From: Rufibacter ruber
Lineage (GTDB): Bacteria > Bacteroidota > Bacteroidia > Cytophagales > Hymenobacteraceae
Length of the DNA: 64,000 nt
Assembly: GCF_001647275.1 (NCBI RefSeq)
Contig: NZ_LRMM01000007.1
Coordinates: 62,001 to 126,000, forward strand
Direction: 5' to 3'
Below are positions 1,381-62,602 of the stretch, piece by piece. A program made the translations under genes and the position numbers. Within the stretch, counting starts at the first letter, position 1, and each line of letters starts with the position of its first letter. Below the pieces are notes generated by a model. It saw only the letters and a program-made list of their open reading frames with translations. It was not told where the DNA came from and ran no database searches.

Positions 1381-1418
1381 CTGTTTTCAGGCTGTTTTCG
1401 CAAAAGTAGCTTAAAAAC
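1381..1418. repeat. Palindromic intergenic repeat, copy 1 (degenerate)
   Basis: CTGTTTTCAGGCTGTTTTC followed by an imperfect right arm with the AAAGTAG variant. Second repeat downstream of the TIGR02757 gene. Confidence 0.6.
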
Positions 1419-1604
1419 GCTATTGCCCAGCATTGTAGAACAGATTGCCGCGGCGGCTTGTTCCGGCAGGGGGAAAGAAATTTGTTATAATTTTGATCTT
1501 TAGTAAACATATTGTTACAGATAAAGACCCGTCTGTGCTTTCACGTTTTTTCTTTAGTAACCATTCTTTCGCACTCTGCTGAAAATCCTCCCTTAGCAGG
1601 TCTG

Positions 1605-1649
1605 TTCCTGTTTTTGGCCTGTTTTCAGAAAAGTAGGCCGAAAACGGAA
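1605..1649. repeat. Palindromic intergenic repeat, copy 2
   Basis: Left arm CTGTTTTTGGCCTGTTTTC, right arm GAAAAGTAGGCCGAAAACGG. It lies 7 bases past the stop of the leftward TIGR02757 gene. Confidence 0.8.
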
Positions 1650-1656
1650 AAGGCTC

Positions 1657-2436
1657 CTAAAACTTCTCCTCCACCCCCAGACCAAAGAGGGCGTAATCAT
1701 ATTTCACCGGATCTACCGGGTCAAAGGCTCTCAGGTGCTGGGTCAGTTCTTCGGCCATGGCCCAGTCTGACTGCGTGCGCTGAAGGAGCCCCAGCTTTCG
1801 GGCCACCCGCTGCACATGCACATCACAGGGGCAGACCAGGTCTGCGGTGGGAATTCTGCCCCAGATCCCGAAATCAACGCCGTGGCTGTCTTTCCTGACC
1901 ATCCAGCGCAGGTACATATTGATGCGCTTACACGCTGATTTCCTGGCGGGCGTAGAAATGTGTTTGCGCGTGCGGGGCGGGGCGTCAGGCAGGGAGAAAA
2001 CCAGTTGGAAGAAATTCTCCAGCCTCTGCTTCTGGTTCACGGCTTCTCTCTCAGGACTGCCCAGAAAAGCCACCTCCAGGCTCTCGTGCTGCTCATAAAA
2101 CCACCGGAAGAAGTACACCAGGTACAGCAAATCAGTGTCATTGAAAGTGCGGTGCTTAAACCCGAGCAACTGCTTCAGGTCATTCTCCTGGTGCTGCAGA
2201 ATGAATTGGTACGGCGCGTGGTCCATGCGCTGCAGCAGCTCCCTGCACTTGTTAATGATGGTCTTGCGCTGTCCCCAGGCCAAAATGGAGGCAAAAAAAC
2301 CGGCAATCTCCACATCCTGCCTGCGAGAGAACAGGTGCGGAATAGACACCGGGTCATTTGGAATAAAGTCTGGGGTGTTGTACCGCTGGTACCGGTCATC
2401 TAACAGGGCTTTGACTTGGGCGTGGGAATAAGACAC
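1657..2436 (-). CDS. TIGR02757 family protein (DUF2400)
   Basis: A 259-residue protein recognised as the TIGR02757/DUF2400 family, widespread in Bacteroidota and of unknown function. Recognisable parts are the N-terminal YxxHAQVKALLDDRYQRYN-like segment, the FASILAWGQRKTI region and the C-terminal GIWGRIPTADLVCPCDVHVQRVARKLGL segment, which resembles the helix-hairpin-helix DNA-glycosylase fold. That resemblance is an inference. The length is typical. The start is GTG at 2436, the first start codon after an in-frame TAA. It stands alone, with mutS2 well downstream and a lysM gene upstream in the same direction. A palindromic repeat follows its stop closely. Confidence 0.85.
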   Translation of the reverse strand: MSYSHAQVKALLDDRYQRYNTPDFIPNDPVSIPHLFSRRQDVEIAGFFASILAWGQRKTIINKCRELLQRMDHAPYQFILQHQENDLKQLLGFKHRTFNDTDLLYLVYFFRWFYEQHESLEVAFLGSPEREAVNQKQRLENFFQLVFSLPDAPPRTRKHISTPARKSACKRINMYLRWMVRKDSHGVDFGIWGRIPTADLVCPCDVHVQRVARKLGLLQRTQSDWAMAEELTQHLRAFDPVDPVKYDYALFGLGVEEKF

Positions 2437-2504
2437 CTTATTTTAATTAGGGATTGGGAAGTAAGAATTGATACTTTTTAGGGCTCTATGAACGCGGTAA
2501 AGAC

Positions 2505-2555
2505 AAAAGAGGCGAAAAGCGGGAGCTGCGGCAGCTTTCCGTTTTTCGCCTCTTT
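2505..2555 (-). terminator. Intrinsic terminator of the LysM gene
   Basis: Long hairpin with AAAAGAGGCGAAAA at one end and TTTTTCGCCTCTTTT at the other, plus an inner AGCTGC/GCAGCT stem. Read on the minus strand the stem ends in a T run. It begins 27 bases past the stop of the leftward LysM gene. Confidence 0.7.
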
Positions 2556-2580
2556 TCCGGAAAACAAGCCGGAAACAGGA
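2538..2580. repeat. Palindromic intergenic repeat, copy 3
   Basis: CCGTTTTTCGCCTCTTTTC paired imperfectly with GAAAACAAGCCGGAAACAGG. It abuts the LysM stop codon (2 bases) and overlaps the terminator stem. Confidence 0.65.
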
Positions 2581-2581
2581 T

Positions 2582-4701: not shown

Positions 4702-4741
4702 CTGTTTTGGGGCTGTTTTCTGAAAAACAGCCCCAAAACAG
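4702..4741. repeat. Palindromic intergenic repeat, copy 4 (perfect)
   Basis: Perfect arms CTGTTTTGGGGCTGTTTT and AAAACAGCCCCAAAACAG around a short centre, between the convergent ends of kdsB and the YciH-like gene. Confidence 0.9.
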
Positions 4742-4756
4742 GAAAAGCTACTTTCT

Positions 4757-5101
4757 TTACCCGCCCGCTTTCTTAGCTTTGTAACCTTGGTCTACCAGCA
4801 GTTGGAGAACCTTGTCCCTGAAATCCCCCTGGATAAAGATTTCGCCGTCTTTGGCACTCCCCCCTACCGCACATTTATTTTTCAGGAGTTTCCCCAGTGC
4901 CTGCAGGTCTTCGTCCTGCCCCACAAACCCGGTGACCAAGGTCACCTGCTTGCCGCTCCTTGCTTTCTTGTCTAACTGCACCCTGAGGTTCTGCTGCTGA
5001 GGCGGCAACGTAGTCACCTGCCCCTCCTGCTGGTAATCATATTCAAAGTCTGGGTTGGTGGAATACACCACCCCCTCCCGGTTTTTCTTGTTTTTGCTCA
5101 T
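4757..5101 (-). CDS. Translation initiation factor, SUI1/YciH family
   Basis: A 114-residue protein of the SUI1/eIF1 fold. The basic N-terminus leads into the SUI1 core: [20 protein letters not shown], then [30 protein letters not shown], ending near [16 protein letters not shown]. Family knowledge: YciH-type proteins bind the small ribosomal subunit and affect start-codon fidelity, but their role in Bacteroidota is not settled. It is 3 bases downstream of the lipid kinase gene in the same direction, so the two are probably co-transcribed. Length is normal for the family. Confidence 0.9.
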
Positions 5102-5104
5102 ACC

Positions 5105-6001
5105 TTATATTAATTGGTCAGCGGGCGCCACTACTTCTAGGGATGTAGGGAACATTTGTACTTCAAACGCATTCGCCAGCCCCACAAATTCCCCATCTGC
5201 GTGAAAATGCAGGGGCTGCTCACTGTGCACCGACACCGTGGCGCACGTGTGGAACTCTGCCAGGTTTGAATGGGCTATCTGTTTAGTCAGCAGGCCATAC
5301 CCCAGCTGCAGGGCCTCTGCCAACCCCACGTGCCTAATCAGACAAACGTCTAATAATCCGTCTTGTATATTGGCCATTGGCGCAATATAGGCGTTGTTCC
5401 CATATTGGGACGCGTTGGCAAATGCCACTACAAAGAAATCAGACGTTAGTTCATGGTCATTGACCCGCACGGTAGCCATCTGTGATTGATAGCTCCTGAA
5501 TTCTTTCACCACCAGTTGAATATAGCTGCTCAAGCCCCGCTTGGTGCTGTTGGCAAACGCAGAGCTCACCACCCCGTCAAAGCCAATACCGGCAGTACAG
5601 AAAAACGGATGGCCGTTAATGGCGCAGGAGTCTATTCTTCCAAATGTGGGTTTATTGAGCAGGGCCAATGCCTGCGGGAGAACCAGCGGAATCCCCAGGT
5701 GGCGCGCCAGCCCGTTGCCAGACCCTTTGGGGAGAATTCCCAGCGCCGCGGATGTTTGAAGAAGCCCCCTGGCCACTTCATTCACCGTACCGTCTCCCCC
5801 TACCGCCACCACCAGCCTGGCCCCCTGGGCAGCGGCTTCCCGGGCTAGTTGGGTGGCATGTCCGGCGTGCTCTGTCAACAGCAGCTCATACTTCCAGCGC
5901 GAATGGTCAAGATGTGCCTCAATCAACGCTGGAACGTTCACACTGCTCTTTACCCCAGATTTGGGATTCAGGATAAAATATGCTTTCTCTGGTATGCCCA
6001 T
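5105..6001 (-). CDS. Diacylglycerol kinase family lipid kinase
   Basis: A 298-residue DagK/YegS/sphingosine-kinase family protein. The N-terminal AYFILNPKSG and the catalytic-domain nucleotide motif VVAVGGDGTVNEVARGL are followed by LPKGSGNGLARHLGIP and the C-terminal beta-sandwich (CTAGIGFDGVVSSAF; DGLLDVCLIR). Family knowledge: these soluble or membrane-associated kinases phosphorylate lipid alcohols such as diacylglycerol with ATP. The exact substrate is unknown. The start at 6001 (MGIPEKAYFILNP) is preferred over an ATG 15 codons upstream because the added residues are basic, Trp/Cys-containing and not family-like. It lies upstream of the YciH-like gene with a 3-base gap. Confidence 0.88.
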   Translation of the reverse strand: MGIPEKAYFILNPKSGVKSSVNVPALIEAHLDHSRWKYELLLTEHAGHATQLAREAAAQGARLVVAVGGDGTVNEVARGLLQTSAALGILPKGSGNGLARHLGIPLVLPQALALLNKPTFGRIDSCAINGHPFFCTAGIGFDGVVSSAFANSTKRGLSSYIQLVVKEFRSYQSQMATVRVNDHELTSDFFVVAFANASQYGNNAYIAPMANIQDGLLDVCLIRHVGLAEALQLGYGLLTKQIAHSNLAEFHTCATVSVHSEQPLHFHADGEFVGLANAFEVQMFPTSLEVVAPADQLI

Positions 6002-6117
6002 GACTAACTTCTGCGCTTGGCGGGTTGGCCAACAGCCCCTTTTCACCCGCCCCCATTGCCTGGCACCATAGTGCCATGGCCTTTGGGCCGGAATGCGACT
6101 GTTGAGGTAAAACTACA

Positions 6118-6153
6118 TAAAAAAAGTGGTGCCGCCCTGAGGCAGCACCACTT
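6118..6153 (-). terminator. gapA intrinsic terminator
   Basis: Hairpin AAGTGGTGC / GCACCACTT with an inner GCC/GGC pair. Read on the minus strand it is followed by a run of seven T. It starts 19 bases past the gapA stop. Confidence 0.85.
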
Positions 6154-6172
6154 CAAAATGCTATTTGCCTGG

Positions 6173-7183
<1,011 letters not shown>

Positions 7184-7300
7184 TTATTACTCGTTTAACC
7201 CCGGCAATTTACATGTTCCCTCAGGTAAAACAAACTAAAAATTTTTCCCGCTCATTTTGAGCATTTTATCCATTACTACGAATTATTTTAAAACGAGGGC

Positions 7301-7331
7301 TTGGCAAATAAAAAACAGCCTTCTATATTTG
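7301..7331 (+). promoter_or_regulatory. tRNA-Glu promoter (Bacteroidota type)
   Basis: TTGG at 7301-7304 and TATATTTG at 7324-7331 are separated by 19 bases and match the -33/-7 consensus of the Bacteroidota primary sigma factor. The tRNA 5' end is 21 bases downstream. Confidence 0.8.
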
Positions 7332-7351
7332 CACCATCAAAACCGAAAGAT

Positions 7352-7426
7352 GGTCCGTTCGTCTAGGGGTTAGGACACCAGATTTTCATTCTGGTAACAG
7401 GGGTTCGATTCCCCTACGGACTACCA
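7352..7426 (+). tRNA. tRNA-Glu (anticodon TTC)
   Basis: Complete cloverleaf: acceptor arms GGTCCGT and ACGGACT, anticodon stem CCAGA/TCTGG around loop TTTTCAT (anticodon TTC), and T arm with GGTTCGATTCC. CCA is encoded at 7424-7426. Confidence 0.97.
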
Positions 7427-7428
7427 GA

Positions 7429-7470
7429 GGGGAAAAGCAGGAAATATCCAGCTTTTCCCCTTTTTTCTTT
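7429..7470 (+). terminator. tRNA-Glu terminator
   Basis: GGGGAAAAGC paired with GCTTTTCCCC across a 12-base loop, followed by TTTTTTCTTT. It begins three bases after the tRNA CCA. Confidence 0.92.
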
Positions 7471-7613
7471 TTCAGCATTTTAGAAAAGTAAAATCCATCT
7501 GTCCCCAAAACGATTTGACACGCTCAATTCTCCAGTAAATAATTTCTTCCACTTGCCGGATTGTCATTTCACTTGTTATAAAATTGTAATAAACCACTCA
7601 CTATTAAAAGGAA

Positions 7614-7647
7614 CTTCCCTTCCATTAATTCTTCCCTTCCATTAATT
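7614..7647. repeat. Tandem 17-bp direct repeat
   Basis: CTTCCCTTCCATTAATT occurs twice back to back (7614-7630 and 7631-7647), just outside the efflux-operon terminator. Confidence 0.8.
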
Positions 7648-7709
7648 AAAAAGTGCCAAATAAAGCAGTCCCATGTGCAAATTGCACATAGGACTGCTTT
7701 ATTTGGCAC
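7646..7709 (-). terminator. Very long hairpin terminator of the RND efflux operon
   Basis: Arms GTGCCAAATAAAGCAGTCC (7653-7671) and its exact complement (7691-7709) enclose a second 8-bp stem ATGTGCAA/TTGCACAT after one mismatch. On the minus strand the stem is followed by TTTTTAATTAA, and it begins 33 bases past the repaired end of the outer-membrane efflux gene. Confidence 0.8.
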
Positions 7710-7741
7710 CGGAAGGGTATTACTCTGGTTGGTCTTTTCTG

Positions 7742-9171
7742 TTATTTCCAGCCGCCGCCAAGCGCCCGGTAAATATTCACTACGGCCTGCATCTGCTGCA
7801 TCTTAGTTTCCACCAGATCAAATCTAGATTCCAGCGCATCGCGTTGGTCATGAGCACTTCCATGTAATCGGCCCGGGCTGAGTTGAAGAGCGTGTTGGAA
7901 ATCTCGATGGACTGCGTGAGTGCTTCCACTTCTCTGGCTTTCAGGTCATAGCTTTTCTCCAGATTGCTGATCTTGACTAACTGATTCGCCACTTCTATGT
8001 ACGCGTTCAGGATAGTGCGTTCATAGTTGTACACCGCCTGAATCTGCTTCGCGTTGGCGCTGTAATAGACAGCCTTGATCGCGTTTCTATTCACCAGCGG
8101 AGCGGTGATGTCACCGGCAAGGGAGTACAGCAAGGACTCTGGCTTTAACAGAAACGTTGGGTTGAACGCCTGGTAGCCAATTCCCGCCGAAATCCCTAAA
8201 GAAGGATAGAACCGCGCTCTGGCCACTTGTACATCCAGCTTGGAGGCTGCCAGATCCAACTCGGCCTGCTTGATGTCTGGCCGGTTGGCAAGCAGCTGCG
8301 CCGGAACTCCGGCCTGAATGGCTTGTGGCGTCAGGTTCTCTAACGGCTGGGTGTTTCTCTGTACCGGTTGCGGAAATCTGCCAATCAGGAAGTTGATACG
8401 GTTCTCGGCTTCGGTGATCTTCTGCTGAATGTCATACTGCAGGCTTTGGGTGTTGAGCACCTGGGCCTGGAAGCGGCGCACCGGCAACTCGGTTACCCGG
8501 GCCGCCTCTTTCTGCAGCTTCACAATTTTCAGGACATTGTTCTGCAGCGCTATGTTCTGCTTGACAATGGCCAGTTGGTTGTCCAGGGCCAGCAGCTCAT
8601 AGTAGTTCTCGGCAATCTCAGAGATCAGGTTGGTCACCATAAAGTTTCGGCCTTCCACCGAGGCAAGATACCGGCTAACCGCCGATTTTTTGGCATTCCG
8701 CAGCTTCCGCCAGATATCCACCTCCCAGGTAGCATACGCGCCTACCATATAATCCTGCAGCGGCTCCGGCATTTCCTTGCCCGGCTTGATGTCCGTGGTC
8801 GCTTCTAGGGCCCCAATGTTGGTGAACCGGGCCACCTTGTCAACCCCAGCAGCCCCGCGCAGCCCCACAGAAGGCAGGAATTCGCCTTTTCTGGCTCTTA
8901 CTTCGTTTCTGGTGATCTCAATTTCCTGTTGGGTGATGTTCAACTCTTGGTTGTTCTGCAAGGCTGTGTCAATCAGCGCCGTCAGGTAAGGATCGGTGAA
9001 GAAATCCATCCACTTCACCTGCGCGGTGCTGGTGGTATCCTGCGAGTTAGAATAACTCGCGGGCACGGCCGCATTCGCTGACTTCTGGATTAACTCAGGG
9101 GTTTTACAGGCTGAATAGGTGAGGGCGATAAGCGCTATCCCCAACCAATTCCATCTTCTATTCTTAAACAT
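7742..9171 (-). pseudogene. RND efflux outer-membrane lipoprotein (TolC/NodT family), one frameshift
   Basis: An outer-membrane channel subunit of a tripartite RND pump. The lipobox LTYSAC puts the lipid cysteine at residue 22. Two TolC-like helical repeats follow (ELNITQQEIEITRNEVRARKGEFLPSVGL; RPDIKQAELDLAASKLDVQVARARFYPSLGI). The frame breaks near 7841-7845. As deposited the protein ends in an unrelated tail (MRWNLDLIWWKLRC...) at 7780. Restoring one missing base gives the normal family end (RDALESRFDLVETKMQQMQ... YRALGGGWK) stopping at 7742, for 476 residues. Its ATG overlaps the permease stop (ATGTTTAA), showing translational coupling. It may be an intact gene with a sequence error or a recent mutation. 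Confidence 0.85.
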
Positions 9172-12100
9172 TTACTTCGGTGTCTACAGGTTGGGGAAAA
9201 TTGTCAATGGAATGGACATAGTCCTCGGTTAAAGTGGTCTCCTCTTCATTTCTGATCAGCTGACGTCCATCGGCCAGATGGCCGAAGATGAAGTACAGCC
9301 CCGGCACGATGATGACCCCGAAGACAGTCCCGAACAGCATTCCGCCCATGGCGGAGGCTCCAATGGTCCGGTTCCCGATGGCCCCGGCCCCGGTGGCGAT
9401 TACCAACGGAATCAAACCGGCGATAAAGGCGAACGAAGTCATCAGAATTGGCCGGAAACGCACTTTAGCTCCTTCAATGGCGGCATCGAGAATTGTGGCT
9501 CCCTGCAGGCGCTTGAGCACGGCAAATTCCACAATCAACACGGCATTTTTACCCAGGAGACCCACCAGCATGATGAGCCCGATCTGGGCGTAGATGTTGT
9601 TCTCCAGCCCCATGAGTTGGAGCACCAGGAAGGAACCGAAAATCCCCACGGGCAGGGAAAACACCACCGCCAACGGAATAATAAAGCTCTCATATTGGGC
9701 GGCCAGCACAAAGTAGACGAACGCCAACACAATGGCGAAGACGTAAATGGATTCGTTGCCGCGGGTAGCCTCATCGTACGAAAGACCTTCCCAGGCAATG
9801 TCATAGCCTTTAGGCAACGACTTAGCTGCTACTTCCTGAATGGCCTGGATGGCGTCTGCGGTGGTATAGCCTTTGGCCGGTTGCCCCTGAATGGCCGCTG
9901 AGTTATACAGGTTGAAACGGGTAATCTCATTGGGCCCCTGCGTCTTCTTCAGCTTCATGAACGCCGAATACGGCACCATTTCGCCCGCTTCGTTCTTCAC
10001 ATACAGATTCAACAAATCAGAGGGAAGTCTTCTGTATTTAGGGTCAGACTGCACGTACACTTTGAAGAACTGGTTGAACTTGGTGAAACCTTGCTCATAG
10101 GTACTCCCAATCAGGATGTTGAGATTATCCATGGCTTTGCCAATAGACACTCCTTTCTGCATAGCCATGTTGTTGTCAATCTGCAGTTCGTACTGCGGAT
10201 AATTGGCGGCAAAGAAGGTGAACAAGCCCGAGAGCTCTTTCCGCTTGCCCAGATTATCCATGAACTCTTGATTCACTTTGTCGAACTCGTGGTAGTCGGT
10301 CTCGGAGTTTTTGTCCAGAAGACGCATGGAGAAACCTCCGGAAGAACCAAAACCGGGGATTGCGGGCGGCTCAAAGAACTCGATCACCGCGCCCAGTCCT
10401 TTGGATCGTTCCTCCAGCTCTTCCATGATCTCTTTCACGTTGTGCCTGCGGTCTGACCAGTCTTTCAGGTTGATCAGACACGTCCCCGCGTTGGAGCCCC
10501 GGCCTTCGGTCATGATCTCGTACCCAGCCAGCGAAGACACTGATTCCACGCCGTCAATCTCTTCACAGATTTTCTGGAGTCTTTGAGACACCTGGTTCGT
10601 TTTCTCCAGCGTAGAGCCCGGCGGTGTCTGGATGATGGCGTAGATGGTGCTCTGGTCCTCGTTCGGGATAAAGCCGGACGGCACAATCTGGTTTTCATAG
10701 AAGATACCGGCCCCAAAGGCGATCAACACCCCAAACGTCACCCATCTTCTGCTCACAATAGAAGTCAGCAAGCTTACGTATTTTCCGGTTAGTTTCTCAA
10801 AACCACGGTTAAAACGGTCCAGGGCCTGGAGAGGATATTGCTTTTCTTGGCGTGCCCGTGGTGGTTTTTCAGCAGCATGGCGCACAGCACCGGCGTAAGG
10901 GTAAGCGCAATCAGCGCCGAAATCACGATGGAACTGGCCATGGTAATGGAGAATTGGCGATAAAAAGTACCCACCGGACCCGTCATGAAGGAGATAGGCA
11001 GGAATACCGACACCATCACGGCGGTAATGGCGATAATAGCACCACTGATCTCGCCAAGTACTTTTTTCACCGCGCTGTAGGGTGAGAGATGCGGCTCTTC
11101 CTCCATTTTGGCATGCACGGCTTCCACCACTACAATGGCGTCATCCACCACAATCCCGATGGCCAGCACCAGGGCAAAGAGCGTCACCATGTTGATGGAA
11201 ATGCCCAGGAACTGAATGATAAAGAACGCCCCAATCAAAGAGACCGGAACCGCCAGGATGGGAATCAGGGTAGAGCGCCAATCGCCCAGGAAGATGAACA
11301 CCACAATGGCCACCAGAATAAACGCGTCGCGGAGGGTATGCACTACCTGCTCAATAGAGGCATCCAGGAATTTGGAGACGTCATAGCTGATTTTATAATC
11401 CATGCCCGGCGGAAAGTACGGACGCATCTCCTCCAGCTGCGCCTTCACATTGGCAATCACTTCACTGGCGTTACTGCCGTAGTTCTGCCGCAACACAATA
11501 GCCGCCGACGACGGCCGTCCAGGTTGGAATAGATGTCAAAGAATTCACTGCCCAGTTCCACTTTGGCAATGTCTCTCAGGTGAATGCTTTCCCCTTCGGC
11601 GTTCGCCCGGATGATCACATCATTGTATTCCTCCGGCTTGTTATACCGGCCTTTGTAGGTGAGCACGTATTCCAGCGACTGAGCGGCTATCCCTGAGCTT
11701 TGGCCTAACCGGCCCGGCCGGCCGATGATGCTTTGTTCCCCCAAGGCTTTCATCACTTCCTCCACTGAGATGTTGTAGGCGCGCATCCGGTCGGGGTTCA
11801 GCCAGATGCGCATGGCGTAGCGGCGGCTACCCAGAATCTGTGCCCGGGCAACCCCTTTGATCCGCTGGATTTCGGGGATCATCTTCACGGTGGCGTAGTT
11901 GAACAGGAACTTCTCGTCCATGCTCTTTTCCTTGGAATAGAGGTTGACGTACATGAGCATGCTGGGCTGTACCGGGGAGATCACCACGCCTTCGCGCTGC
12001 ACCAGTTCCGGCAAAAGGGGCATGACCTGGTCTACCCGGGTTTTTACCCGCACCACCGCGTCATTGGGATCGGTTCCGGGCTCAAAGATGATCCTGAGCG

Positions 12101-12365
12101 TCGCCTCGCCGGCGCTGGTAGCATCTGAGGCGATGTACCGCATGCCCTCCACGCCATTAATGGCCTGTTCCAGGGTAATCAAGGTAGACTTCACCAGCAC
12201 ATCGGCACTGGAGCCCGGGTAGGCAATGAAGATGTTGACCGTGGTGGGAGCAATGTCCGGGAACTGGGAAATAGGCAGCTTTTTGATGGCCAGGCCGCCC
12301 ACAAAAACAATCATGATCGATATTACAATTGCGAATACCGGTCTTCTTATGAATTTACTAAACAT
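9164..12365 (-). pseudogene. RND efflux permease (AcrB/HAE1 family), two frameshifts
   Basis: The inner-membrane proton-driven pump subunit of the efflux operon. The whole sequence is present but split in three frames, 11457-12365, 10789-11496 and 9164-10885. The N-terminus FIRRPVFAIVISIMIVFVGGLA, the porter domains, and the TM4 segment LVLAIGIVVDDAIVVVE with the adjacent aspartates for proton relay are recognisable. So are the second half (RWVTFGVLIAFGAG; SGFIPNEDQ) and the C-terminal membrane block. One base is missing near 11508-11517 (restores SNLDGRPSAAIVLRQNYG) and one in the A-run near 10842-10847 (restores HGHAKKKQYPLQALDRFNRGFE). The repaired length is 1067 residues, normal for AcrB. 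Nothing else looks decayed, so consensus error and recent inactivation are both possible. Confidence 0.87.
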
Positions 12366-12391
12366 GTCTTCTGCTTTTTAGGACCCCTCCA

Positions 12392-13480
12392 CTATTCCGC
12401 ATATAAATTCAATTGCGCTAGGACAGACTTCGGCTCCACGTATTTTGAGTGTATTTTTTCGTTTTCGCGCACTAAACGCAAGCCTTCCAGCAAGATTCTG
12501 TCGTCTTTGGAAAGCCCTTCCTGCACCACATAGATGTGCGGCAGCTCCGCGGCCACGGTGATTTCCCTTGACTTGATCTTGTTGTCATTACCCACCACGT
12601 ACACGTATTTCTTGTCCAGGACTTCAAAGGTGGCTTTCTGCGGAATAAGCAGGGCATTTTTCATAGGCACCTCCATCAGGATATTCCCCGTCTCGCCGTG
12701 CCGAAGCAGCCCTTTGGGGTTGGGGAAAGTAGCCCGGAAGGCGATGTTCCCGGTCTCGTTGTTGAAATCGGCTTCAATGGTCTGTACTTCGCCGGGGTAG
12801 TCAAATACCTGGTGGTTGGCCATTTCCAACTTCACTTTGGTGGTGTGGTCGTTTTTGAGGTTGGTTTTGTAATCCAGGTACTCGGCCTCGGGCACGTTGA
12901 AGTACACCCACATCTTGCTATTGTCAGAAAGAGTGGTCAGCAGGTCGCCTTCGTCCACCAAACTGCCCAGCCGTACCTGGAAATGATCCATGATGCCGTC
13001 AAACGGGGCTTTGATCTGGGTGAAGCCTAAGTGCACCTGCGCCATGGAGACTTCGGCCTTAGCCTTGTTCAGTTTAGCTTTGGCCATGGCCAGTTCGTTG
13101 GGAGACACCACGTTGCCGGAGGCCAGCTTCTTCGTGTTCTGGTACTCAATCTCCGCGAAACTGGCTTCGGCCTGGGCTTTCTGCAGCTCGGCCTCGTACA
13201 TGGCTGGCATGATCTGAAACATGAGCTGGCCTTTTCTGACCGTTTGCCCTTCGTCTACATAAATCTTCTGCAGGTAACCTTTCTCTAAGGCTCTGATTTC
13301 AATATGACTGATGGCGTGGATCTGACTCACGTATTCTTTGGTGATTAAGGTGTCCTTCACCAAGGGACTGCTTACCAGAAACTGGGTGGCCTCTTCCTTT
13401 TCTTCTTTTTTGGATTCGCAGCCTGTATGGCACAACAAGACATACAAACCCAAAACCATGGGCATGAGAATTCTCTTCAT
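12392..13480 (-). CDS. RND efflux periplasmic adaptor (membrane fusion protein)
   Basis: A 362-residue AcrA-type adaptor linking permease and outer-membrane channel. It starts at 13480 (MKRILMPMVLGLYVLLCHTGC), giving a lipobox with Cys21. An ATG 24 codons upstream would put non-signal residues in front and is rejected. The domains run as a lipoyl half-motif (IEIRALEKGYLQKIYVDEGQTVRKGQLMFQI), a coiled-coil hairpin (about 85-140), the second lipoyl half (LGFTQIKAPFDGIMDHFQVRLGSLVDEGDLL), and beta-barrel and membrane-proximal domains. First gene of the operon, 26 bases before the permease. Substrate not predictable; RND pumps of this type commonly export drugs or other hydrophobic compounds. Confidence 0.9.
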   Translation of the reverse strand: MKRILMPMVLGLYVLLCHTGCESKKEEKEEATQFLVSSPLVKDTLITKEYVSQIHAISHIEIRALEKGYLQKIYVDEGQTVRKGQLMFQIMPAMYEAELQKAQAEASFAEIEYQNTKKLASGNVVSPNELAMAKAKLNKAKAEVSMAQVHLGFTQIKAPFDGIMDHFQVRLGSLVDEGDLLTTLSDNSKMWVYFNVPEAEYLDYKTNLKNDHTTKVKLEMANHQVFDYPGEVQTIEADFNNETGNIAFRATFPNPKGLLRHGETGNILMEVPMKNALLIPQKATFEVLDKKYVYVVGNDNKIKSREITVAAELPHIYVVQEGLSKDDRILLEGLRLVRENEKIHSKYVEPKSVLAQLNLYAE

Positions 13481-13740
13481 GATACTTGAATTGATAGTAA
13501 TTAGGGATGTGTAAAACGATATACTGGTGCGCCCTTTCAGCAGTAGACACAAGGGCGCGGTGCAGTAAATACAAGGAAAGGCAATATGACTTGCCTGTTG
13601 AATAACTTAACTTATTTCTGAAAACCTGAGACAGGTGTTGCTATGGTTTCTTTACAAAGCATACCGATACATTACGCCCCTCAAGTGGCAACGAAATGAT
13701 TAACAAACCGGCACGGCACGAAAGAAAAAAAGCGAAGGAA

Positions 13741-13755
13741 TAGGCGAATCGCCTA
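13741..13755. repeat. Short inverted repeat after a hypothetical gene
   Basis: TAGGCGA / TCGCCTA with one central base, 16 bases past the stop of the leftward hypothetical gene. On the minus strand a T run follows about 10 bases later, so weak terminator activity is possible. Confidence 0.35.
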
Positions 13756-13771
13756 AAGAGGGAATGGTAAA

Positions 13772-14194
13772 CTAGATCCGGAAGACCCGGAAGAGAAGAT
13801 AGAATCTTAAAGGGGAGAAAGAGAAAAAGTCCTTACAGTACGTGAGGTTCTTTTTCAGAAAGAAAAGTAGAAAGGCTAGTACCTGGGCGTAGAAAACCGT
13901 GGCGAGAAAGGGGCCGGTCGCCTGGTTTTTCTTTAGAAGGGATTCGGTTTCCTCAATCTCCGTTTCAGCGACATATTTGTCAAAAGGGGTTTTTTCTGCG
14001 CTGGGGGAGGAATATGCTACTAGTAAGGAAAGGTCTTGGTGAACAGTGCCAACGGCGGTTTGTACTGTCCGTTGATTATTTCCGGAAGAAGCAATGTAAA
14101 GGCTTCCCTTATTCGCGTGGGCGTAGAGAAAACTATATCCGCTCAGCAGGAGGATACACAGGGAAAGAAGATAGTTCAGGAAAGCCTTTGGCAT
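13772..14194 (-). CDS. Hypothetical protein with N-terminal signal/TM segment
   Basis: A 140-residue protein of no family I recognise. The start at 14194 (MPKAFLNYLLSLCILLLSGYSFLYAHA) gives a clean signal peptide or anchor; an ATG 13 codons upstream would bury it. A polar region with YVAETEIEETESLLKKN follows, then a second hydrophobic segment (ATVFYAQVLAFLLFFL) and a short basic/aromatic tail ending FRVFRI. Topology suggests a small inner-membrane or periplasmic protein. Its 5' part lies in a 182-bp duplication repeated at 20787-20968, where the gene is truncated. It sits next to a transposase remnant. Confidence 0.55.
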   Translation of the reverse strand: MPKAFLNYLLSLCILLLSGYSFLYAHANKGSLYIASSGNNQRTVQTAVGTVHQDLSLLVAYSSPSAEKTPFDKYVAETEIEETESLLKKNQATGPFLATVFYAQVLAFLLFFLKKNLTYCKDFFSFSPLRFYLLFRVFRI

Positions 14195-14234
14195 CTTGGG
14201 CGTAAAAGTAGAACAGTCTATCAATATAGACAAC
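14053..14234. repeat. 182-bp direct duplication, copy A
   Basis: Matches 20787-20968 with four mismatches I can count by eye and no gaps. It covers the start and first ~47 codons of the hypothetical gene plus 40 bases upstream. Identity stops abruptly at both edges. Confidence 0.9.
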
Positions 14235-14242
14235 GAAGCTCT

Positions 14243-14823: not shown

Positions 14824-14957
14824 CCATACCTTTTTCGGCCATGTTTTGTAATGCTTGATGTCTTGATTTTTGCATGTTTCTGTAGTTGAACATGAGGTTC
14901 AGGCTTGCTTGTGGTCCCAAGCCCACAACCTCATCAATTTTAGCTAAATTCTATTTC

Positions 14958-15350: not shown

Positions 15351-15358
15351 CGTTTTCT

Positions 15359-15386
15359 ACATTATGTCACTACAGTGACATAATGT
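15359..15386. promoter_or_regulatory. Perfect palindrome in the response regulator leader
   Basis: ACATTATGTCACT, 2 bases, then the exact reverse complement AGTGACATAATGT. It ends 8 bases upstream of the start codon, so it could be an operator or an mRNA hairpin over the translation start. No T run follows. Confidence 0.6.
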
Positions 15387-15420
15387 CATTGCTTTTGAAG
15401 TCTCCTCCCCCGTCAGTGTT

Positions 15421-25062: not shown

Positions 25063-25230
25063 GTAAAAGCGTATATCTCAGTTTCAACCTCCCCCCTTAC
25101 CCCTTGCAACAGCGCGATAGACGCTTCACTTGTACCGGTTACTTCTGTTCCAGGGGGGAATTCAATTTTTTATTCTCAACAGACATTCTGGGAACGTCTT
25201 CGTTTCTCCTTAATCTGGACGGGAGCGTTT

Positions 25231-25262
25231 CTGGCCTGTTTTTAGGAAAACAGCTCTAAAAC
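25231..25262. repeat. Palindromic intergenic repeat, copy 5 (degenerate)
   Basis: CTGGCCTGTTTTTAGG followed by AAAACAGCTCTAAAAC; imperfect stem. Confidence 0.55.
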
Positions 25263-25326
25263 ACACCCAACAACCAGCAGCTTCACCAGAGAAAACACAA
25301 AACCGCTTCAAGCCAACGCACATAAG

Positions 25327-25364
25327 CTGTTTTAGGCCTGATTTCAGAAAAACAGGCCTAAACC
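25327..25364. repeat. Palindromic intergenic repeat, copy 6
   Basis: CTGTTTTAGGCCTGATTTC with right arm AAAAACAGGCCTAAAC. It touches the stop of the adenylate cyclase gene. Confidence 0.8.
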
Positions 25365-25365
25365 G

Positions 25366-26786: not shown

Positions 26787-27102
26787 GCACGTTATTTTGA
26801 ATTCAAATTAGAACTTCTTTCCCGTTTATGCTAGGGTTACCGCTGATAAATTCATTTGGAGGCCCCTGAACAGAATGCTGATACTGGTTTGCGACTTCCT
26901 CACCCTGGCGCTGGCCAGCTGCCGGCATTTCTGTTTTCGCCTGTTTTTGGGAAATCAGGCCGAAAACAGAAGTGGGAGTTTTTAAAACTGCCCACCAAGG
27001 TGTAAGGCACAGAAATGCTCAGTAGTTTTCTTAGAAAAGGCCGCCTGGCCGGCACCGTTGCCTTGTGCATGACCTGTGAGGCTGCCCCCTCCCTGCCCTG
27101 GG
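26787..27102. other. Intergenic region with one palindromic repeat
   Basis: No gene. It contains repeat copy 7, downstream of the histidine kinase. Confidence 0.55.
26931..26969. repeat. Palindromic intergenic repeat, copy 7
   Basis: CTGTTTTCGCCTGTTTTTGG with right arm CAGGCCGAAAACAG; the outer CTGTTTTCG/CGAAAACAG stem is perfect. Confidence 0.8.
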
Positions 27103-29091: not shown

Positions 29092-29130
29092 CTGTTTCTG
29101 GGCTGTTTTTGTGAAAGTAGGCCCAAACCG
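29092..29130. repeat. Palindromic intergenic repeat, copy 8
   Basis: CTGTTTCTGGGCTGTTTTTG with right arm GAAAGTAGGCCCAAACCG (GTAG variant). Confidence 0.7.
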
Positions 29131-29237: not shown

Positions 29238-29275
29238 CTGTTTTCGGCCTGTTTTCTGAAAAACAGCGAAAACAG
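29238..29275. repeat. Palindromic intergenic repeat, copy 9
   Basis: CTGTTTTCGGCCTGTTTTC with right arm GAAAAACAGCGAAAACAG; the outer stem is perfect, with two to three bases deleted on the right. Confidence 0.8.
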
Positions 29276-29390
29276 AAATCTGGGCACACAGCGCCAACCT
29301 GGCTTGTGGAATTCTTCAAAGGTTAACCCCTATCTCACCCCCATTTTACGCCTGGCAGTTTCTTTGTCTGGAAAGCGAATGGCAATGCAC

Positions 29391-31589: not shown

Positions 31590-31948
31590 TTTTCTCTGAT
31601 TATACTATAAATCTAAGAAAAAGTAATGGTAAACATAATATAACTAAAAGGAAAGCGGTTAGGGTCAAGGCGATCATGGGGAACGGTAAAATTTATCACT
31701 CCGCCTCTATACCATACCCGTTGCCCAAAAATCTTTCTTCTTTTCAAGGCTCCTGGTGCCAACGCCTGCCACTGTTCCCCATTTTCTGTTTTTGGCCTGT
31801 TTTCCTGAAAGTAGCTCCAAAACAACCCTCCCGGTCTTTTCCCCATGAGAGGAATTACGGCCCCAAGCCTACCTGGGCACCACCTTGACCCAGGAACCAG
31901 ACACCGGTAAAAAATGCGTAATTTGCCGGTTCATTAAGAAAGTCAGAC
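31590..31948. other. Divergent region between multi-PAS kinase and truC
   Basis: No gene. It contains repeat copy 10, the one copy not clearly at a gene 3' end. AT-rich sequence next to the kinase start probably holds its promoter, but no clean box was seen. Confidence 0.5.
31786..31823. repeat. Palindromic intergenic repeat, copy 10
   Basis: CTGTTTTTGGCCTGTTTTCC with right arm GAAAGTAGCTCCAAAACA (GTAG variant). It lies between divergent genes. Confidence 0.7.
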
Positions 31949-32683: not shown

Positions 32684-33031
32684 AGTGTTCCCTTCTGGTG
32701 TAGCGTACAGATAATTTGAACTACAGCCCTCTTGCGGCAGGGATGCCGTGCTTAGTACGCACGTTAAAAAATGGTCACTCCTGGCTAAATCCGTTTCTGT
32801 TTTTAGCCTCTTTTCTTAAAAACAGGCCAAAAACAGAAGCCAAAGGACAAATCCTTTTCTGCCTGCTTCTTCAGGCACTCCTCTTGTTTCTGCCACTTAC
32901 GGTGAATCTTCCTGAGCAGCAGTTGCCTCTGGCGTACCTAAAACAGACTCAGTGCTACTTATCGCTAAGAAAATACTACCTCCCATCCTGTAAATTTTGC
33001 TTTCTTTGCGCAAAGCCAAACTTAACGCACT
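32684..33031. other. Intergenic region upstream of first GH5 gene
   Basis: No gene. It contains repeat copy 11, a palindromic CTTTGCGCAAAG at 33004-33015 and the TAACGCACTA motif touching the GH5 start codon. A loose -7 box (TAAATTTTG, 32991-32999) is possible. Confidence 0.5.
32797..32836. repeat. Palindromic intergenic repeat, copy 11
   Basis: CTGTTTTTAGCCTCTTTTC with right arm AAAAACAGGCCAAAAACAG; a few internal mismatches. Confidence 0.75.
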
Positions 33032-34179: not shown

Positions 34180-34219
34180 CTGTTTTTGGGCTGTTTTGGC
34201 CAAAACAGCCAAAAAACAG
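34180..34219. repeat. Palindromic intergenic repeat, copy 12
   Basis: CTGTTTTTGGGCTGTTTTGG with right arm CCAAAACAGCCAAAAAACAG, 50 bases past the GH5 stop. Confidence 0.85.
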
Positions 34220-37624: not shown

Positions 37625-37663
37625 CGTGCAATTCTACCCCCTGTTTAAGCCTGCCTCAAATTT

Positions 37664-37701
37664 CTGTTTTCGCTGTTTTTCTAAAAACAGGCCGAAAACA
37701 G
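37664..37701. repeat. Palindromic intergenic repeat, copy 13
   Basis: CTGTTTTCGCTGTTTTTC with right arm AAAAACAGGCCGAAAACAG, 39 bases past the LamG gene stop. Confidence 0.8.
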
Positions 37702-40721: not shown

Positions 40722-40761
40722 CTGTTTTGGGGCTATTTTTCAGAAAACAGCCCCAAAACAG
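40722..40761. repeat. Palindromic intergenic repeat, copy 14
   Basis: CTGTTTTGGGGCTATTTTTC with right arm GAAAACAGCCCCAAAACAG, between the convergent ends of the regulator and the SGNH-GH5 gene. Confidence 0.88.
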
Positions 40762-43850: not shown

Positions 43851-44160
43851 GTAGGTGGTTAGGTATGCGTATAAAATTGAAAATCCTTTTGGTCTGATCA
43901 GGCAGTGGCAGCTTCACCGTTTCTTATTGTTCTTTTACCCTGCCTTCTGTTTTTGACCTGTTTTCCTAAAAACAGGCCCAAAACAGAAAACTCAGGAAAG
44001 TCATGCGTACCCCTTTGAATCCTACTGAAATACAGCAGGAAGGAAAGGGGGCTGCTGAACTGCCCCCTCCCGTTGTAAGAAATAGTCTCTTTTTCAGAAA
44101 ATGGCCTCCCTTCCTGACCTTGTCTGGAAAAAGCCAAACCAGGTCAGGAATATTCAGAGG
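43851..44160. other. Intergenic region with one palindromic repeat
   Basis: No gene. It contains repeat copy 15 downstream of the three-module GH5 gene, and the leader of the SGNH-GH5 gene. Confidence 0.55.
43947..43986. repeat. Palindromic intergenic repeat, copy 15
   Basis: CTGTTTTTGACCTGTTTTCC with right arm AAAAACAGGCCCAAAACAG. Confidence 0.82.
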
Positions 44161-47044: not shown

Positions 47045-47084
47045 CTGTTTTTGGCCTGTTTTCTGAAAATCAAGCCAAAAACAG
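47045..47084. repeat. Palindromic intergenic repeat, copy 16
   Basis: CTGTTTTTGGCCTGTTTTC with right arm GAAAATCAAGCCAAAAACAG, about 150 bases past the SGNH gene stop. Confidence 0.78.
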
Positions 47085-50691: not shown

Positions 50692-50731
50692 CTGTTTTGG
50701 GGCTGTTTTCAGAAAAACAGCCCCAAAACAG
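50692..50731. repeat. Palindromic intergenic repeat, copy 17 (perfect)
   Basis: CTGTTTTGGGGCTGTTTTC with right arm AAAAACAGCCCCAAAACAG. Confidence 0.9.
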
Positions 50732-50838
50732 AAAATTGTTACTTATAGATGGGCTACCACAGCTTACTGTCTGCCAGTCGCCAGGTTAACCCAAAAGCTT
50801 GTCTGTGAAGACAGAAAACAAGATGACAACCTAGATTG

Positions 50839-50876
50839 TGTTTTCGACCTGTTTTTGTAAAAACAGGCCGAAAACA
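50839..50876. repeat. Palindromic intergenic repeat, copy 18
   Basis: TGTTTTCGACCTGTTTTTG with right arm AAAAACAGGCCGAAAACA, 43 bases past the isomerase stop. Confidence 0.85.
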
Positions 50877-50918
50877 ACAGACAACAGACAACAGACAACC
50901 TAATCACTAAAAAACTAC

Positions 50919-54860: not shown

Positions 54861-54866
54861 TTAGAG

Positions 54867-61053: not shown

Positions 61054-61085
61054 CAAACTTAGCTTATACCTTAAACTAAGACAAG
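61054..61085 (-). promoter_or_regulatory. Candidate promoter of GH5-susCD operon
   Basis: On the minus strand TAAGTTTG (61061-61054) matches TAnnTTTG. TTG lies 20 bases upstream (about 61082-61085). It sits about 190 bases before the GH5 lipoprotein start. Confidence 0.5.
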
Positions 61086-61734
61086 TACTTTTTTAACATT
61101 TTCTCAGACAAATCTGACTATTACCGCCCGAATCTCCTATTCTGAGTCACTTCACAAGAAGAAAAAAGTGGCACGGCTTCTTAAAATAGTTTTGAAATAA
61201 GCCGCAGTTAATTAACAACCTCTAATCACTTATACCAACTCCCCAACCCTATTTGCTATTTTCACAACAGGATAATCCTAGCCAAGTAGACATGAAACCA
61301 CTCCCAGATATGAGTCTACAGCATTCTGTATAATAGTTTTTTTACCAAATTCTCAAAACCATGAATCCCCGCTGCTTCTTTAGATACAGGATATTAAGAA
61401 CTAAACCACCCTTTCAGAACCCGTACAAAATTGCATTTTAACCATATACAAAACCTGATCTCCAGCCTCCGCAGCAGCAGAAACGCTCATAACCTGCCTT
61501 TTCTTAAGCCAAGAGGGTTTAAAGTATCATTCTCACATTAGAAAGGCAGTAAGAAAGTAAAGGAGACAATCATCAAACCCTTTACATAACCTAAGAATGG
61601 GTATGGTGTCAAAGGCTTAACTTTTATACCTGTACAACGTCTAATCCTGGTCTTACTAAAAAGATGCCTGATCAAAAGATTTCATCTTATTTCTGACAGA
61701 AGTTTCTTTCTGGGTCTTTGGGTAATAGGATTCT

Positions 61735-61772
61735 CTGTTTTGGAGCTGTTTTCCTGAAAGTAGCCCTAAAAC
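61735..61772. repeat. Palindromic intergenic repeat, copy 19
   Basis: CTGTTTTGGAGCTGTTTTCC with right arm GAAAGTAGCCCTAAAACG (GTAG variant). Confidence 0.7.
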
Positions 61773-62000
61773 GTCCGCACACACAAGAAGACTTATGGGC
61801 GAGGAACAGAAAGGGTGGATCTGGAAACGTTTCAAAAACTTTAAGAGCTTTCTCTAAAAAACCAGACTGAGAACCTCTCCTTTCTTTGTATCTGGGTTTT
61901 GGAGGAATAAAAGTAGGGGAAGGAAATAACGTCTCTTTCACTACTTTCTACTGCTCCCAATGTTCCTAAAGGTTCTTTCAGATAAAAGAATCTTCGTTTA

Positions 62001-62161
62001 GAGCTTGTTTAAATTATGATTTTGCAAGCGAAAACGGGGAGCGAAAGGTTCTGGCGAAGCGTTTTTTGAGCAGCATACGCCCCGCTATGGTGCGAGTCAA
62101 CCGCGAAGTCAGGTTCTTTTGATACCCGTTTGCAGCGCAAAAGGCAAATTTGAACATGCTC
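62001..62161. mobile_element. 161-bp MITE-like element, copy 2
   Basis: Same length and near-identical to 38137-38297. Ends GAGCTTGTTTAAA and TTTGAACATGCTC. Flanks read TTA on both sides (TTTA left, TTATAG right), consistent with a 3-bp target duplication. Confidence 0.75.
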
Positions 62162-62392
62162 TTATAGTATTCTGACCTGCCAAATATTTGAGAGCATCAT
62201 ATTCCTTCCTACAAGAAACTTCCTGGTGCCAAGGCTCTGAAGGAGGTAGATACAAAGTGTTCAACAGCCTGGAACAATAAAGTTTAGCTGGCGAAAAATG
62301 GGAATGAGGTTTAGGCCACGTCATCTTAGTGAGGCTAAGCACCACCAGGGGGAAAGAAAATGGCAGATTCCAATTCTATTGCTACCGTATTA

Positions 62393-62422
62393 GAGCGCAA
62401 ACGGCAAATTCAAACATGCCCT
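62393..62422. mobile_element. Solo end of the MITE-like element
   Basis: GAGCGCAAACGGCAAATTC and AAACATGCCC repeat the right end of the 161-bp element and are preceded by TTA. Probably an internally deleted copy. Confidence 0.5.
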
Positions 62423-62562
62423 AAGCATCTAAAGACTGTATACATGAGAGAGTTAACCCAGACAGATATTCCTCCCAGCAAAGTAAGGCGCACCTGTGAT
62501 CTGGGCAAATTCTTTGTCAGGTCACGGGGACATGCATGAGGGTGTGACCGAAAATAAAACTC

Positions 62563-62602
62563 CTGTTTTAGGGCTGTTTTCTTAAAAACAGCCCTAAAAC
62601 AG
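62563..62602. repeat. Palindromic intergenic repeat, copy 20 (perfect)
   Basis: CTGTTTTAGGGCTGTTTTC with right arm AAAAACAGCCCTAAAACAG, 85 bases past the SGNH gene stop. Confidence 0.9.

What the first reader, a model, noticed from the sequence alone, without database searches (positions are those of the whole stretch)
1381..62602. About 20 copies of a ~40-bp palindromic intergenic repeat
A palindrome of the form CTGTTTTnGGCCTGTTTTC ... AAAAACAGGCCnAAAACAG occurs about 20 times in 64 kb. Copies begin at 1381, 1605, 2538, 4702, 25231, 25327, 26931, 29092, 29238, 31786, 32797, 34180, 37664, 40722, 43947, 47045, 50692, 50839, 61735 and 62563. None lies inside a convincing gene and most sit 2-240 bases past a stop codon. 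Central bases differ between copies but change in pairs (GGGG/CCCC, TGGCC/GGCCA, AGGGC/GCCCT), which implies selection for a hairpin. They are not ordinary terminators: the outer arm ends in A on the 3' side rather than T. They could be a REP-like element, a factor-dependent 3'-end or RNA-stability element, or a protein-binding site.
Basis: seen in the sequence. Interest (0 to 1): 0.72.

Follow-up and report, generated by a model that had tools for sequence, protein, structure and literature searches.

The report
Rufibacter-specific intergenic palindromes at gene ends
A 46-letter palindrome sits in many gaps between genes in the bacterial genus Rufibacter, tends to stay in the same places as species diverge while its spelling drifts into species dialects, and behaves more like a landing site for an unknown DNA-binding protein than like a jumping repeat or an RNA hairpin.

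Summary
In detail: all 20 copies exist, plus one weaker copy. A 1.107-Mb sample of the genome gives 527 copies, 0 in the reversed control, about 2,600 per genome by extrapolation. The genus is Rufibacter. Seven Rufibacter genomes scanned carry 300-500 per Mb, in species dialects (G006 is weakest). Sister genera show essentially none.

Copies favour gene 3' ends: in 100-300 bp gaps 81/91 convergent, 239/410 tandem, 33/112 divergent. About a tenth of 3'-oriented copies abut a stable hairpin.

It fails defining tests of a RAYT-type REP: no end tag, and one single-contig genome has it without a RAYT above cut-off. It shows no sign of selection as RNA: G·U and A·C mispairs are 122:122, against 30:9 in terminators. 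It is not obviously mobile: in a close species pair it is in both of 56, one of 9, neither of 50 gaps, and none of the 9 is a clean 40-50 bp insertion. Its T/A tracts are almost frozen there; the rest changes at near flank rate.

Best reading: a selected, DNA-level, dyad-symmetric protein site at transcription-unit boundaries, probably a bidirectional barrier aiding termination. The protein is unknown.

The parts
1381..1420 (.). palindrome copy, 4 mismatches
1608..1647 (.). palindrome copy, 3 mismatches, 9 bp past a stop
2539..2578 (.). palindrome copy, 4 mismatches, 3 bp past a stop
4702..4741 (.). palindrome copy, 0 mismatches, between convergent genes; folds at -21.9 kcal/mol as ssDNA
25225..25264 (.). 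palindrome copy, 4 mismatches
25327..25365 (.). palindrome copy, 4 mismatches, abuts a stop
26931..26969 (.). palindrome copy, 2 mismatches
29092..29130 (.). degenerate copy, 6 mismatches; does not fold better than shuffles
29238..29277 (.). palindrome copy, 3 mismatches
31786..31825 (.). palindrome copy between divergent genes, 3 mismatches; does not fold better than shuffles
32797..32836 (.). palindrome copy, 1 mismatch
34180..34219 (.). palindrome copy, 0 mismatches; a hairpin lies just upstream and its U-tract straddles the element start
37662..37701 (.). palindrome copy, 3 mismatches, convergent gap
40722..40761 (.). palindrome copy, 1 mismatch, convergent gap
43947..43986 (.). palindrome copy, 0 mismatches
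47045..47084 (.). palindrome copy, 2 mismatches
50692..50731 (.). palindrome copy, 0 mismatches; folds at -24.6 kcal/mol as ssDNA
50838..50877 (.). palindrome copy, 2 mismatches
61735..61774 (.). palindrome copy, 4 mismatches, 913 bp from the next stop
62563..62602 (.). palindrome copy, 0 mismatches; folds at -24.6 kcal/mol as ssDNA

Best explanation
The element is a vertically inherited DNA site of about 46 bp under sequence-specific selection. It has four T/A-tract blocks (GTTTT and T..TT, then their mirror images) arranged as a dyad. It most likely binds a dyad-symmetric protein (dimer or tetramer) present across Rufibacter. Sitting mainly at gene 3' ends, and in part joined to intrinsic terminators (its first T-tract then serves as their U-tract), the bound site would act as a bidirectional barrier: it stalls RNA polymerase where the hairpin forms, backs up or replaces the canonical terminator, and separates neighbouring transcription units. 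SHOWN here: genus restriction, dialects, position agreement between species, the constrained blocks, 3'-end bias, terminator junctions, absence of RNA-strand bias. INFERRED: that a protein binds it, and that the outcome is a transcription barrier.
For: Close pair G017/G022: substitution rate 0-0.09 at G2, T3-6, T12, T15-16 and mirrors, 0.14-0.57 elsewhere (35 copies kept); identity 78.9% inside copies, 67.3% outside. Occupancy: both 56, one 9, neither 50 of 115 gaps; the shared count exceeds 2,000 of 2,000 length-stratified shuffles (34.5 expected), and 41 of 46 pairs agree within 15 bp (random placement 28%). G000/G048: 25 of 48 shared, 19.6 expected, 0 of 2,000 shuffles as high; 10 of 18 within 15 bp (random 27%). 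G·U:A·C 122:122 near stops, 30:9 in 31 U-tract hairpins, p=0.002. 3'-end dose effect 81/91, 239/410, 33/112 over seven genomes. A hairpin abuts the element start in 45 of 425 3'-oriented copies, 1 when shuffled; 3-19% in six other genomes. Canonical terminators in convergent gaps: Rufibacter 107/179, sister genera 25/28, p=0.003.
Against: No protein was identified. Free stem positions still co-vary (identical 4-base arms 69 of 210, 17 expected; two-sided Watson-Crick changes 20, 7.7 expected), which plain protein binding does not require; arm correction by template switching or a cruciform step may be added. 33/112 short divergent gaps carry a copy, so a pure 3'-end role is incomplete. Terminators and the element often co-occur (58 of 102 convergent gaps); Hymenobacter, without the element, also shows only 4/6. 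G006 has no convergent excess over the whole gap range (12/21, divergent 13/24), and 22 of its 89 copies fall in called genes. With the own-dialect scan, convergent gaps compared across species read 7 both, 10 own only; in G000/G048 alone 6 both, 3 own only. The barrier function itself is untested.
Confidence: 0.42

Rival explanations
1. RNA hairpin: transcribed, it folds at the 3' end of mRNAs and acts as a factor-dependent terminator or blocks 3' exonucleases.
For: 3'-end bias; the three well-kept copies folded are very stable; paired changes in well-kept copies.
Against: G·U equals A·C on the transcribed strand (122:122 near stops; 261:272 in all tandem gaps) where terminator hairpins show 30:9. 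Two degenerate copies folded do no better than shuffles. Loss of pairing is as common as gain (53 and 62 one-sided changes). The share of well-paired copies is similar in convergent (0.34), near-stop (0.31) and divergent (0.31) gaps. Copies also sit in divergent gaps.
Confidence: 0.14
2. Orphan REP/MITE-like selfish repeat: old insertions spread by a transposase, with copies homogenised within each species by recombination or re-insertion, giving dialects.
For: High copy number, species dialects, co-varying arm subfamilies with linkage inside an arm, junction with terminator U-tracts as a possible target preference.
Against: Positions agree between species. None of 9 discordant gaps is a clean 40-50 bp insertion, though two poorly aligned ones (length differences 66 and 85 bp) could be longer insertions. 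No target signal in the flanks. Fewer copies in low-GC DNA (2.17 per 10 kb below 46% GC, 5.51 at 52-55%). Two exact-pattern scans of IMG/VR gave 0. Near-zero substitution at the tracts indicates selection.
Confidence: 0.2
3. REP sequence propagated by the genome's RAYT (REP-associated tyrosine transposase) enzymes.
For: Palindromic, extragenic, hundreds to thousands of copies; RAYT genes over the cut-off in 15 of 16 Rufibacter genomes. Two of the three G000 RAYTs over the cut-off have copies of the element on both sides within 165 bp (127/164 and 38/159 bp), against 107 of 680 genes in general.
Against: Each of the three RAYTs carries its own, different palindrome on both flanks (read by eye); the third has no copy of the element within 500 bp. 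No GTAG/CGTC-type unpaired end tag. G017, a one-contig genome with 321 matches of the deep pattern, has no RAYT above cut-off (best 37 bits). Not examined: the flanking repeats of six weaker RAYT-like matches in G000.
Confidence: 0.08
4. Genome-wide self tag, analogous in distribution to DNA uptake sequences or Chi: dense, spread over the genome, species-specific in spelling, sparser in foreign-looking DNA.
For: About one per 2 kb, dialects, fewer copies in low-GC stretches.
Against: Half-sites almost never stand alone (18 of 623; the six perfect ones are at contig ends), 395 of 406 copies intergenic, tied to 3' ends; no uptake or nuclease link tested.
Confidence: 0.06

Closest known systems
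REP / BIME elements (E. coli type, GTAG- and CGTC-tagged families; PMC3733652, passages seen)
   Same: short extragenic palindromes in high copy number, with stem subfamilies made of alternative complementary residues
   Different: no unpaired end tag, symmetric ends, no RAYT dependence in G017, positions shared between species, frozen T/A tracts, no G·U preference
Intrinsic (Rho-independent) terminators
   Same: lie past stop codons, fill convergent gaps, and about a tenth abut a real hairpin
   Different: A-rich rather than U-rich 3' side, weak T/A next to the loop, G·U and A·C equal, also present in divergent gaps
DNA uptake sequence dialects of Neisseriaceae (PMC3630211, search listing and start of abstract only)
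   Same: genome-wide motif whose spelling differs by species
   Different: 46-bp palindrome, almost no solo sites, almost absent from coding DNA, no transformation link tested
Operator-like sites of nucleoid or boundary proteins (general knowledge, no call)
   Same: dyad symmetry, phased T/A tracts, position-specific constraint
   Different: far denser (about 2,600 per genome) and placed at transcription-unit ends; no protein known

Membership tests
REP / RAYT system | short palindrome, mostly extragenic, more than 100 copies per genome | tested here: met
   527 copies in 1.107 Mb; 395 of 406 intergenic
REP / RAYT system | unpaired terminal tag (GTAG or CGTC) at one end | tested here: not met
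   information falls to background within 3-4 bases beyond the 40-nt core on both sides, symmetric
REP / RAYT system | copies flank the RAYT gene as its cognate repeat | tested here: inconclusive
   three RAYTs over the NF047646 cut-off carry three other palindromes on both flanks, but two of them also have copies of this element within 165 bp on both sides (107 of 680 genes do); flanking repeats of six weaker RAYT-like matches not examined
REP / RAYT system | RAYT present in genomes that carry the repeat | tested here: not met
   15 of 16 Rufibacter over cut-off; G017 none (best 37 bits) yet 321 matches of the deep pattern
Intrinsic terminator | stable GC stem followed by a U-tract on the transcribed strand | tested here: not met
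   consensus ends in AAAACAGAAA. Of 157 terminator calls near copies, 24 start their U-tract at 0 to +5 of the element (its own first T-tract), 12 straddle its start (-5 to -2), 3 use the second tract
RNA hairpin element | G·U tolerated over A·C on the RNA strand | tested here: not met
   122:122 near stops, 261:272 in all tandem gaps; positive control 30:9
RNA hairpin element | compensatory changes in the stem | tested here: inconclusive
   strong in copies with at most 2 mismatches, weak in those with 4-7, none in excess at positions 13-14; 20 two-sided against 7.7 expected in the close pair
MITE / mobile element | presence/absence polymorphism with clean empty sites or target duplication | tested here: not met
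   9 of 115 gaps discordant between G017 and G022, none a clean 40-50 bp insertion; two poorly aligned cases could be longer insertions
MITE / mobile element | ends match a parental transposon | tested here: inconclusive
   the six perfect solo halves in 1.1 Mb are all at contig ends; the rest of the genome was not searched for parents
Protein-binding operator | position-specific purifying selection in contact blocks | tested here: met
   rates 0-0.09 at tract positions (35 aligned copies), flank identity 67.3%
Protein-binding operator | a protein that binds it | not testable with these tools
   needs pull-down or occupancy mapping

The most novel reading that the evidence does not exclude
Rufibacter marks most transcription-unit ends with a dedicated DNA boundary site read by an unknown protein that works as a bidirectional terminator and insulator. 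Site and protein co-evolve as species dialects, in effect a genus-specific layer of transcription termination added to, and partly replacing, intrinsic terminators.
Probability: 0.28. Interest if true: 0.85.

Novelty: new variant of a known kind. Interest (0 to 1): 0.62.

Why it matters
Bacterial extragenic palindromes are usually read as products of RAYT transposition or as RNA hairpins, and their function is disputed. Here the spread can be measured across the 16 held genomes of one genus. The copies look selected, vertically inherited and DNA-level, with species dialects at shared positions. That makes the old question of what such repeats do directly testable: a pull-down and a Term-seq experiment would decide much of it. 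If a boundary protein is found, bacteria have a site-specific, genome-wide way to separate neighbouring genes.

Tried and rejected
Rejected or inconclusive ideas. (1) RAYT-cognate REP: each of three RAYTs has its own palindrome, one genome lacks a RAYT above cut-off; but two RAYTs also have the element nearby, so this test alone is inconclusive, and on re-checking I raised that rival from 0.06 to 0.08. (2) RNA hairpin, by the G·U test. (3) Solo half-sites as parents of a MITE: the six perfect ones are all at contig ends. (4) Element on phages: two exact-pattern scans of IMG/VR, 0 matches. (5) A ~200-aa Y1-type protein as partner: by eye the G017 ORF looks like an ordinary RAYT-like protein; in G000 no ORF of 150 aa with a start was listed at that place; the eight loci fetched (Y1-type and weaker RAYT-like hits) show no consistent element association. 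(6) The deep tract pattern over 241 genomes of the order: outside Rufibacter, counts mostly match the control; exceptions are G252 (33, control 2), G275 (34, 0), G295 (26, 7) and G206 (95, 59); the listed matches of G252 and G275 have other sequences, those of G295 and G206 were not seen. (7) Loop inversion between G017 and G022: loop reverse-complemented in 7 of 38 pairs, 3.8 expected, largest shuffle 10, so only suggestive. (8) Matches in the orthologous r9|r10 gap near the r10 start look coding to me (a start miscall) and were not used as evidence, but they do stand in the pooled counts. (9) Rfam: no family at the element, one tRNA only. (10) Literature: no report of this element found in searches; passages of PMC12306157 and PMC13155455 searched, no Rufibacter. 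(11) Number of element-free gaps above 8 kb: 8 seen, 9 expected, so not unusual in number.

Rows left out: gaps under 60 bp (45 bp for ortholog comparisons) and, where the scripts say so, over 800-1500 bp; (covariation; mispairs), 54, 72 and 95 use only copies with the common 4-4-4 spacing; one search drops aligned copies with gaps or under 24 of 40 identities.
Full report
WHAT IS THERE. The 20 copies are real and form one family. The consensus is TTTCTGTTTTnGGsCTGTTTTynnrAAAACAGsCCnAAAACAGAAA; information falls to background outside about 46 nt, equally on both sides. In a first 825-kb sample of the same genome 422 copies have at most 8 mismatches; the reversed sequence gives 6, all at 8 mismatches. 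In 1.107 Mb, 527 copies have at most 7 mismatches, reversed 0. That extrapolates to about 2,600 per 5.5-Mb genome. The whole genome holds 944 copies of the strict 34-position pattern at up to 3 mismatches, control 0. Half-sites rarely occur alone: 18 of 623 at up to 2 mismatches, and the six perfect solo halves in the larger sample lie at contig ends, where the draft assembly breaks inside the palindrome.

WHOSE IS IT. The exact pattern is found in 13 of 16 genomes of the genus (own genome included) and in 0 of 134 other genomes of the family. The deeper pattern TTTT-N7-TTTT-N4-AAAA-N7-AAAA gives 878, 853, 321 and 47 in four Rufibacter genomes with control 0; among 25 sister-genus genomes 24 have 0 and one has 1. 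In 20-kb neighbourhoods of 15 relatives the own-dialect scan finds 4-9 copies each, control 0. Species-specific weight matrices give 300-500 copies per Mb in G000, G006, G012, G057, G048 and G017/G022; G006 is the least clear (69 copies, control 2). The dialects differ, for example tgCGTTTaGgGGCTgTTTTT in G048 and cCGTTTTTgGcCTgTTTTC in G017/G022. The same matrices, the weak G006 one apart, find 0 in Pontibacter (155 kb) and Hymenobacter (44 kb) and 0-1 in 25 other loci. In Adhaeribacter (44 kb) each of the six matrices and their mean finds one place. Only the G006 matrix rings more widely, with a control of similar size (Pontibacter 5, control 3; Adhaeribacter 1, control 3; Hymenobacter 2, control 5; the 25 loci 25, control 14).

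WHERE IT SITS. With a simple hexamer gene caller of my own, 395 of 406 copies (at most 7 mismatches) are intergenic. Over seven Rufibacter genomes, gaps of 100-300 bp carry a copy in 81/91 convergent, 239/410 tandem and 33/112 divergent cases (sums of the rows; chi-square p about 1e-16; G017 and G022 are syntenic, so not independent). The rate follows the number of gene 3' ends in the gap. G006 is the exception over the full range (12/21 convergent, 13/24 divergent; 22 of its 89 copies fall in called genes, control 5). In tandem gaps 164 of 242 copies are nearer the upstream stop than the downstream start.

LINK TO TERMINATORS. Among 422 gene 3' ends with a copy, 157 have a terminator call. 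In 39 of these the U-tract starts between -5 and +12 of the element start: 24 at 0 to +5 (the element's own first T-tract), 12 straddling its start, 3 at the second tract; another 13 lie just past the far end (+39 to +41). A stable hairpin abuts the element start in 45 of 425 3'-oriented copies, 1 in shuffled upstream sequence, and in 3-19% in six other genomes, shuffled 0 or 1 (lowest G057, 2 of 60). Canonical terminators were called in 107/179 convergent gaps in five Rufibacter genomes, and in Pontibacter 19/20, Adhaeribacter 2/2, Hymenobacter 4/6; pooled sister genera 25/28, p=0.003, Pontibacter alone p=0.001. In G000, 35 of 102 convergent gaps have only the element, 58 both, 4 only a terminator, 5 neither. 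By contrast a GC hairpin with a T-rich 3' arm follows gene r8 in all 12 species in which that gap could be compared.

RAYT TESTS. Three proteins pass the NCBIfam RAYT cut-off in G000. Their flanks carry three other palindromes, one pair per gene, read by eye. Against a simple 'not this one': two of the three also have copies of the element on both sides within 165 bp (127/164 and 38/159 bp), which 107 of 680 genes in the sample do; the third has none within 500 bp. Six further, weaker matches in G000 were not examined for flanking repeats. G017, a single-contig genome, has no RAYT above cut-off but has the element. The ends lack the GTAG or CGTC tag of the large REP families (PMC3733652, passages).

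NO SIGN OF SELECTION AS RNA. On the transcribed strand of tandem gaps G·U and A·C mispairs are equal: 122:122 within 60 bp of the stop and 261:272 overall. The same count on 31 U-tract hairpins of this genome, scored without preference for either, gives 30:9 (difference p=0.002). Paired changes exist: in the window 18 two-sided cells, 9.3 shuffled, and in the sample z about 12 at position 7 in copies with at most 2 mismatches. In copies with 4-7 mismatches the signal falls to z 2.5-3.0, and at positions 13-14 pairing is below expectation, part of which the mismatch cut-off may cause. Mutual information is strong between mirror positions 7 and 32 but also inside one arm (7-10), which points to arm subfamilies. 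Of five window copies folded, three are very stable and two do no better than shuffles.

NOT OBVIOUSLY MOBILE, BUT SELECTED. In the close pair G017/G022 (median protein identity 92%), 115 orthologous gaps have the element in both (56), one (9) or neither (50). The shared count is above all 2,000 length-stratified shuffles (34.5 expected), and 41 of 46 placeable pairs agree within 15 bp (random placement 28%). Of the 9 discordant gaps none is a clean 40-50 bp insertion: several still carry a weak or half copy, others differ by larger indels, and two with poorly aligned flanks (differences of 66 and 85 bp) could be longer insertions. In 35 aligned copies the substitution rate is 0-0.09 at G2, T3-6, T12, T15-16 (and mirrors) and 0.14-0.57 elsewhere; identity is 78.9% inside copies and 67.3% outside. 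Two-sided Watson-Crick changes are 20, 7.7 expected (largest of 200 shuffles 15), so arm-to-arm correction also occurs. For the distant pair G000/G048, 25 of 48 gaps share it, 19.6 expected (0 of 2,000 shuffles), and 10 of 18 agree within 15 bp, although each species tends to show its own dialect there. Less favourable: with the own-dialect scan, convergent gaps pooled over relatives read 7 both, 10 own only; in G000/G048 6 both, 3 own only. Density falls in low-GC stretches (2.17 per 10 kb below 46% GC, 5.51 at 52-55%); of 8 element-free gaps above 8 kb, 6 have GC at or below 0.471, but 9 such gaps are expected by chance.

READING. Constraint in four phased T/A blocks, freedom elsewhere, dyad symmetry, no strand preference, shared positions and species dialects fit a protein-binding DNA site best. 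Its place at 3' ends and its junction with terminator hairpins suggest a bidirectional barrier to RNA polymerase. The protein and the barrier effect are inference. Arm covariation is the main loose end; template-switch correction of imperfect palindromes, or a cruciform step, would explain it (general knowledge, not tested). A selfish origin with later use cannot be excluded.

LIMITS. Gene calls, terminator calls and mismatch thresholds are my own scripts. The own sample is 1.1 of 5.5 Mb; most relatives are known only from 20-kb neighbourhoods, six from 200-220 kb. A planned doubling of the close-pair sample was not possible.

Noticed in passing
window 9164-12314, minus strand: An AcrB-family RND transporter gene reads as three consecutive ORFs (profile parts 18-276, 285-499, 544-1020), so it looks frameshifted or broken. 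Described only.
   Followed up: no
window 4742-21802: A 17-kb stretch with no copy of the element at up to 7 mismatches (mean spacing 2 kb), normal GC, with a tRNA at 7352-7423.
   Followed up: partly
window 14053-14234 and 20787-20968: Direct repeat of 182 nt, 98% identical, inside the element-free stretch.
   Followed up: no
window 38132-38298 and 61996-62162: Direct repeat of 167 nt, 95% identical.
   Followed up: no
ends of contigs C13, C35, C54, C4, C80, C112 of G000: Draft contigs end inside the palindrome: all six perfect solo half-sites of the sample lie within about 40 bp of a contig end.
   Followed up: partly
L002, L003, L004 (G000 contigs C100, C97, C112): Three RAYT genes, each flanked by its own REP-like palindrome with GGCGC/GTGCC ends; near two of them copies of the present element also lie on both sides within 165 bp.
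   Followed up: partly
close pair G017/G022, orthologous copies: The 4-base loop evolves very fast (differs in 29 of 38 pairs) and is the exact reverse complement in 7 of 38, 3.8 expected: a hint of loop inversion, within the shuffled range.
   Followed up: partly
genomes G252 and G275 of the same order: 33 (control 2) and 34 (control 0) matches of the tract pattern, the listed ones with other sequences: probably unrelated repeats.
   Followed up: no
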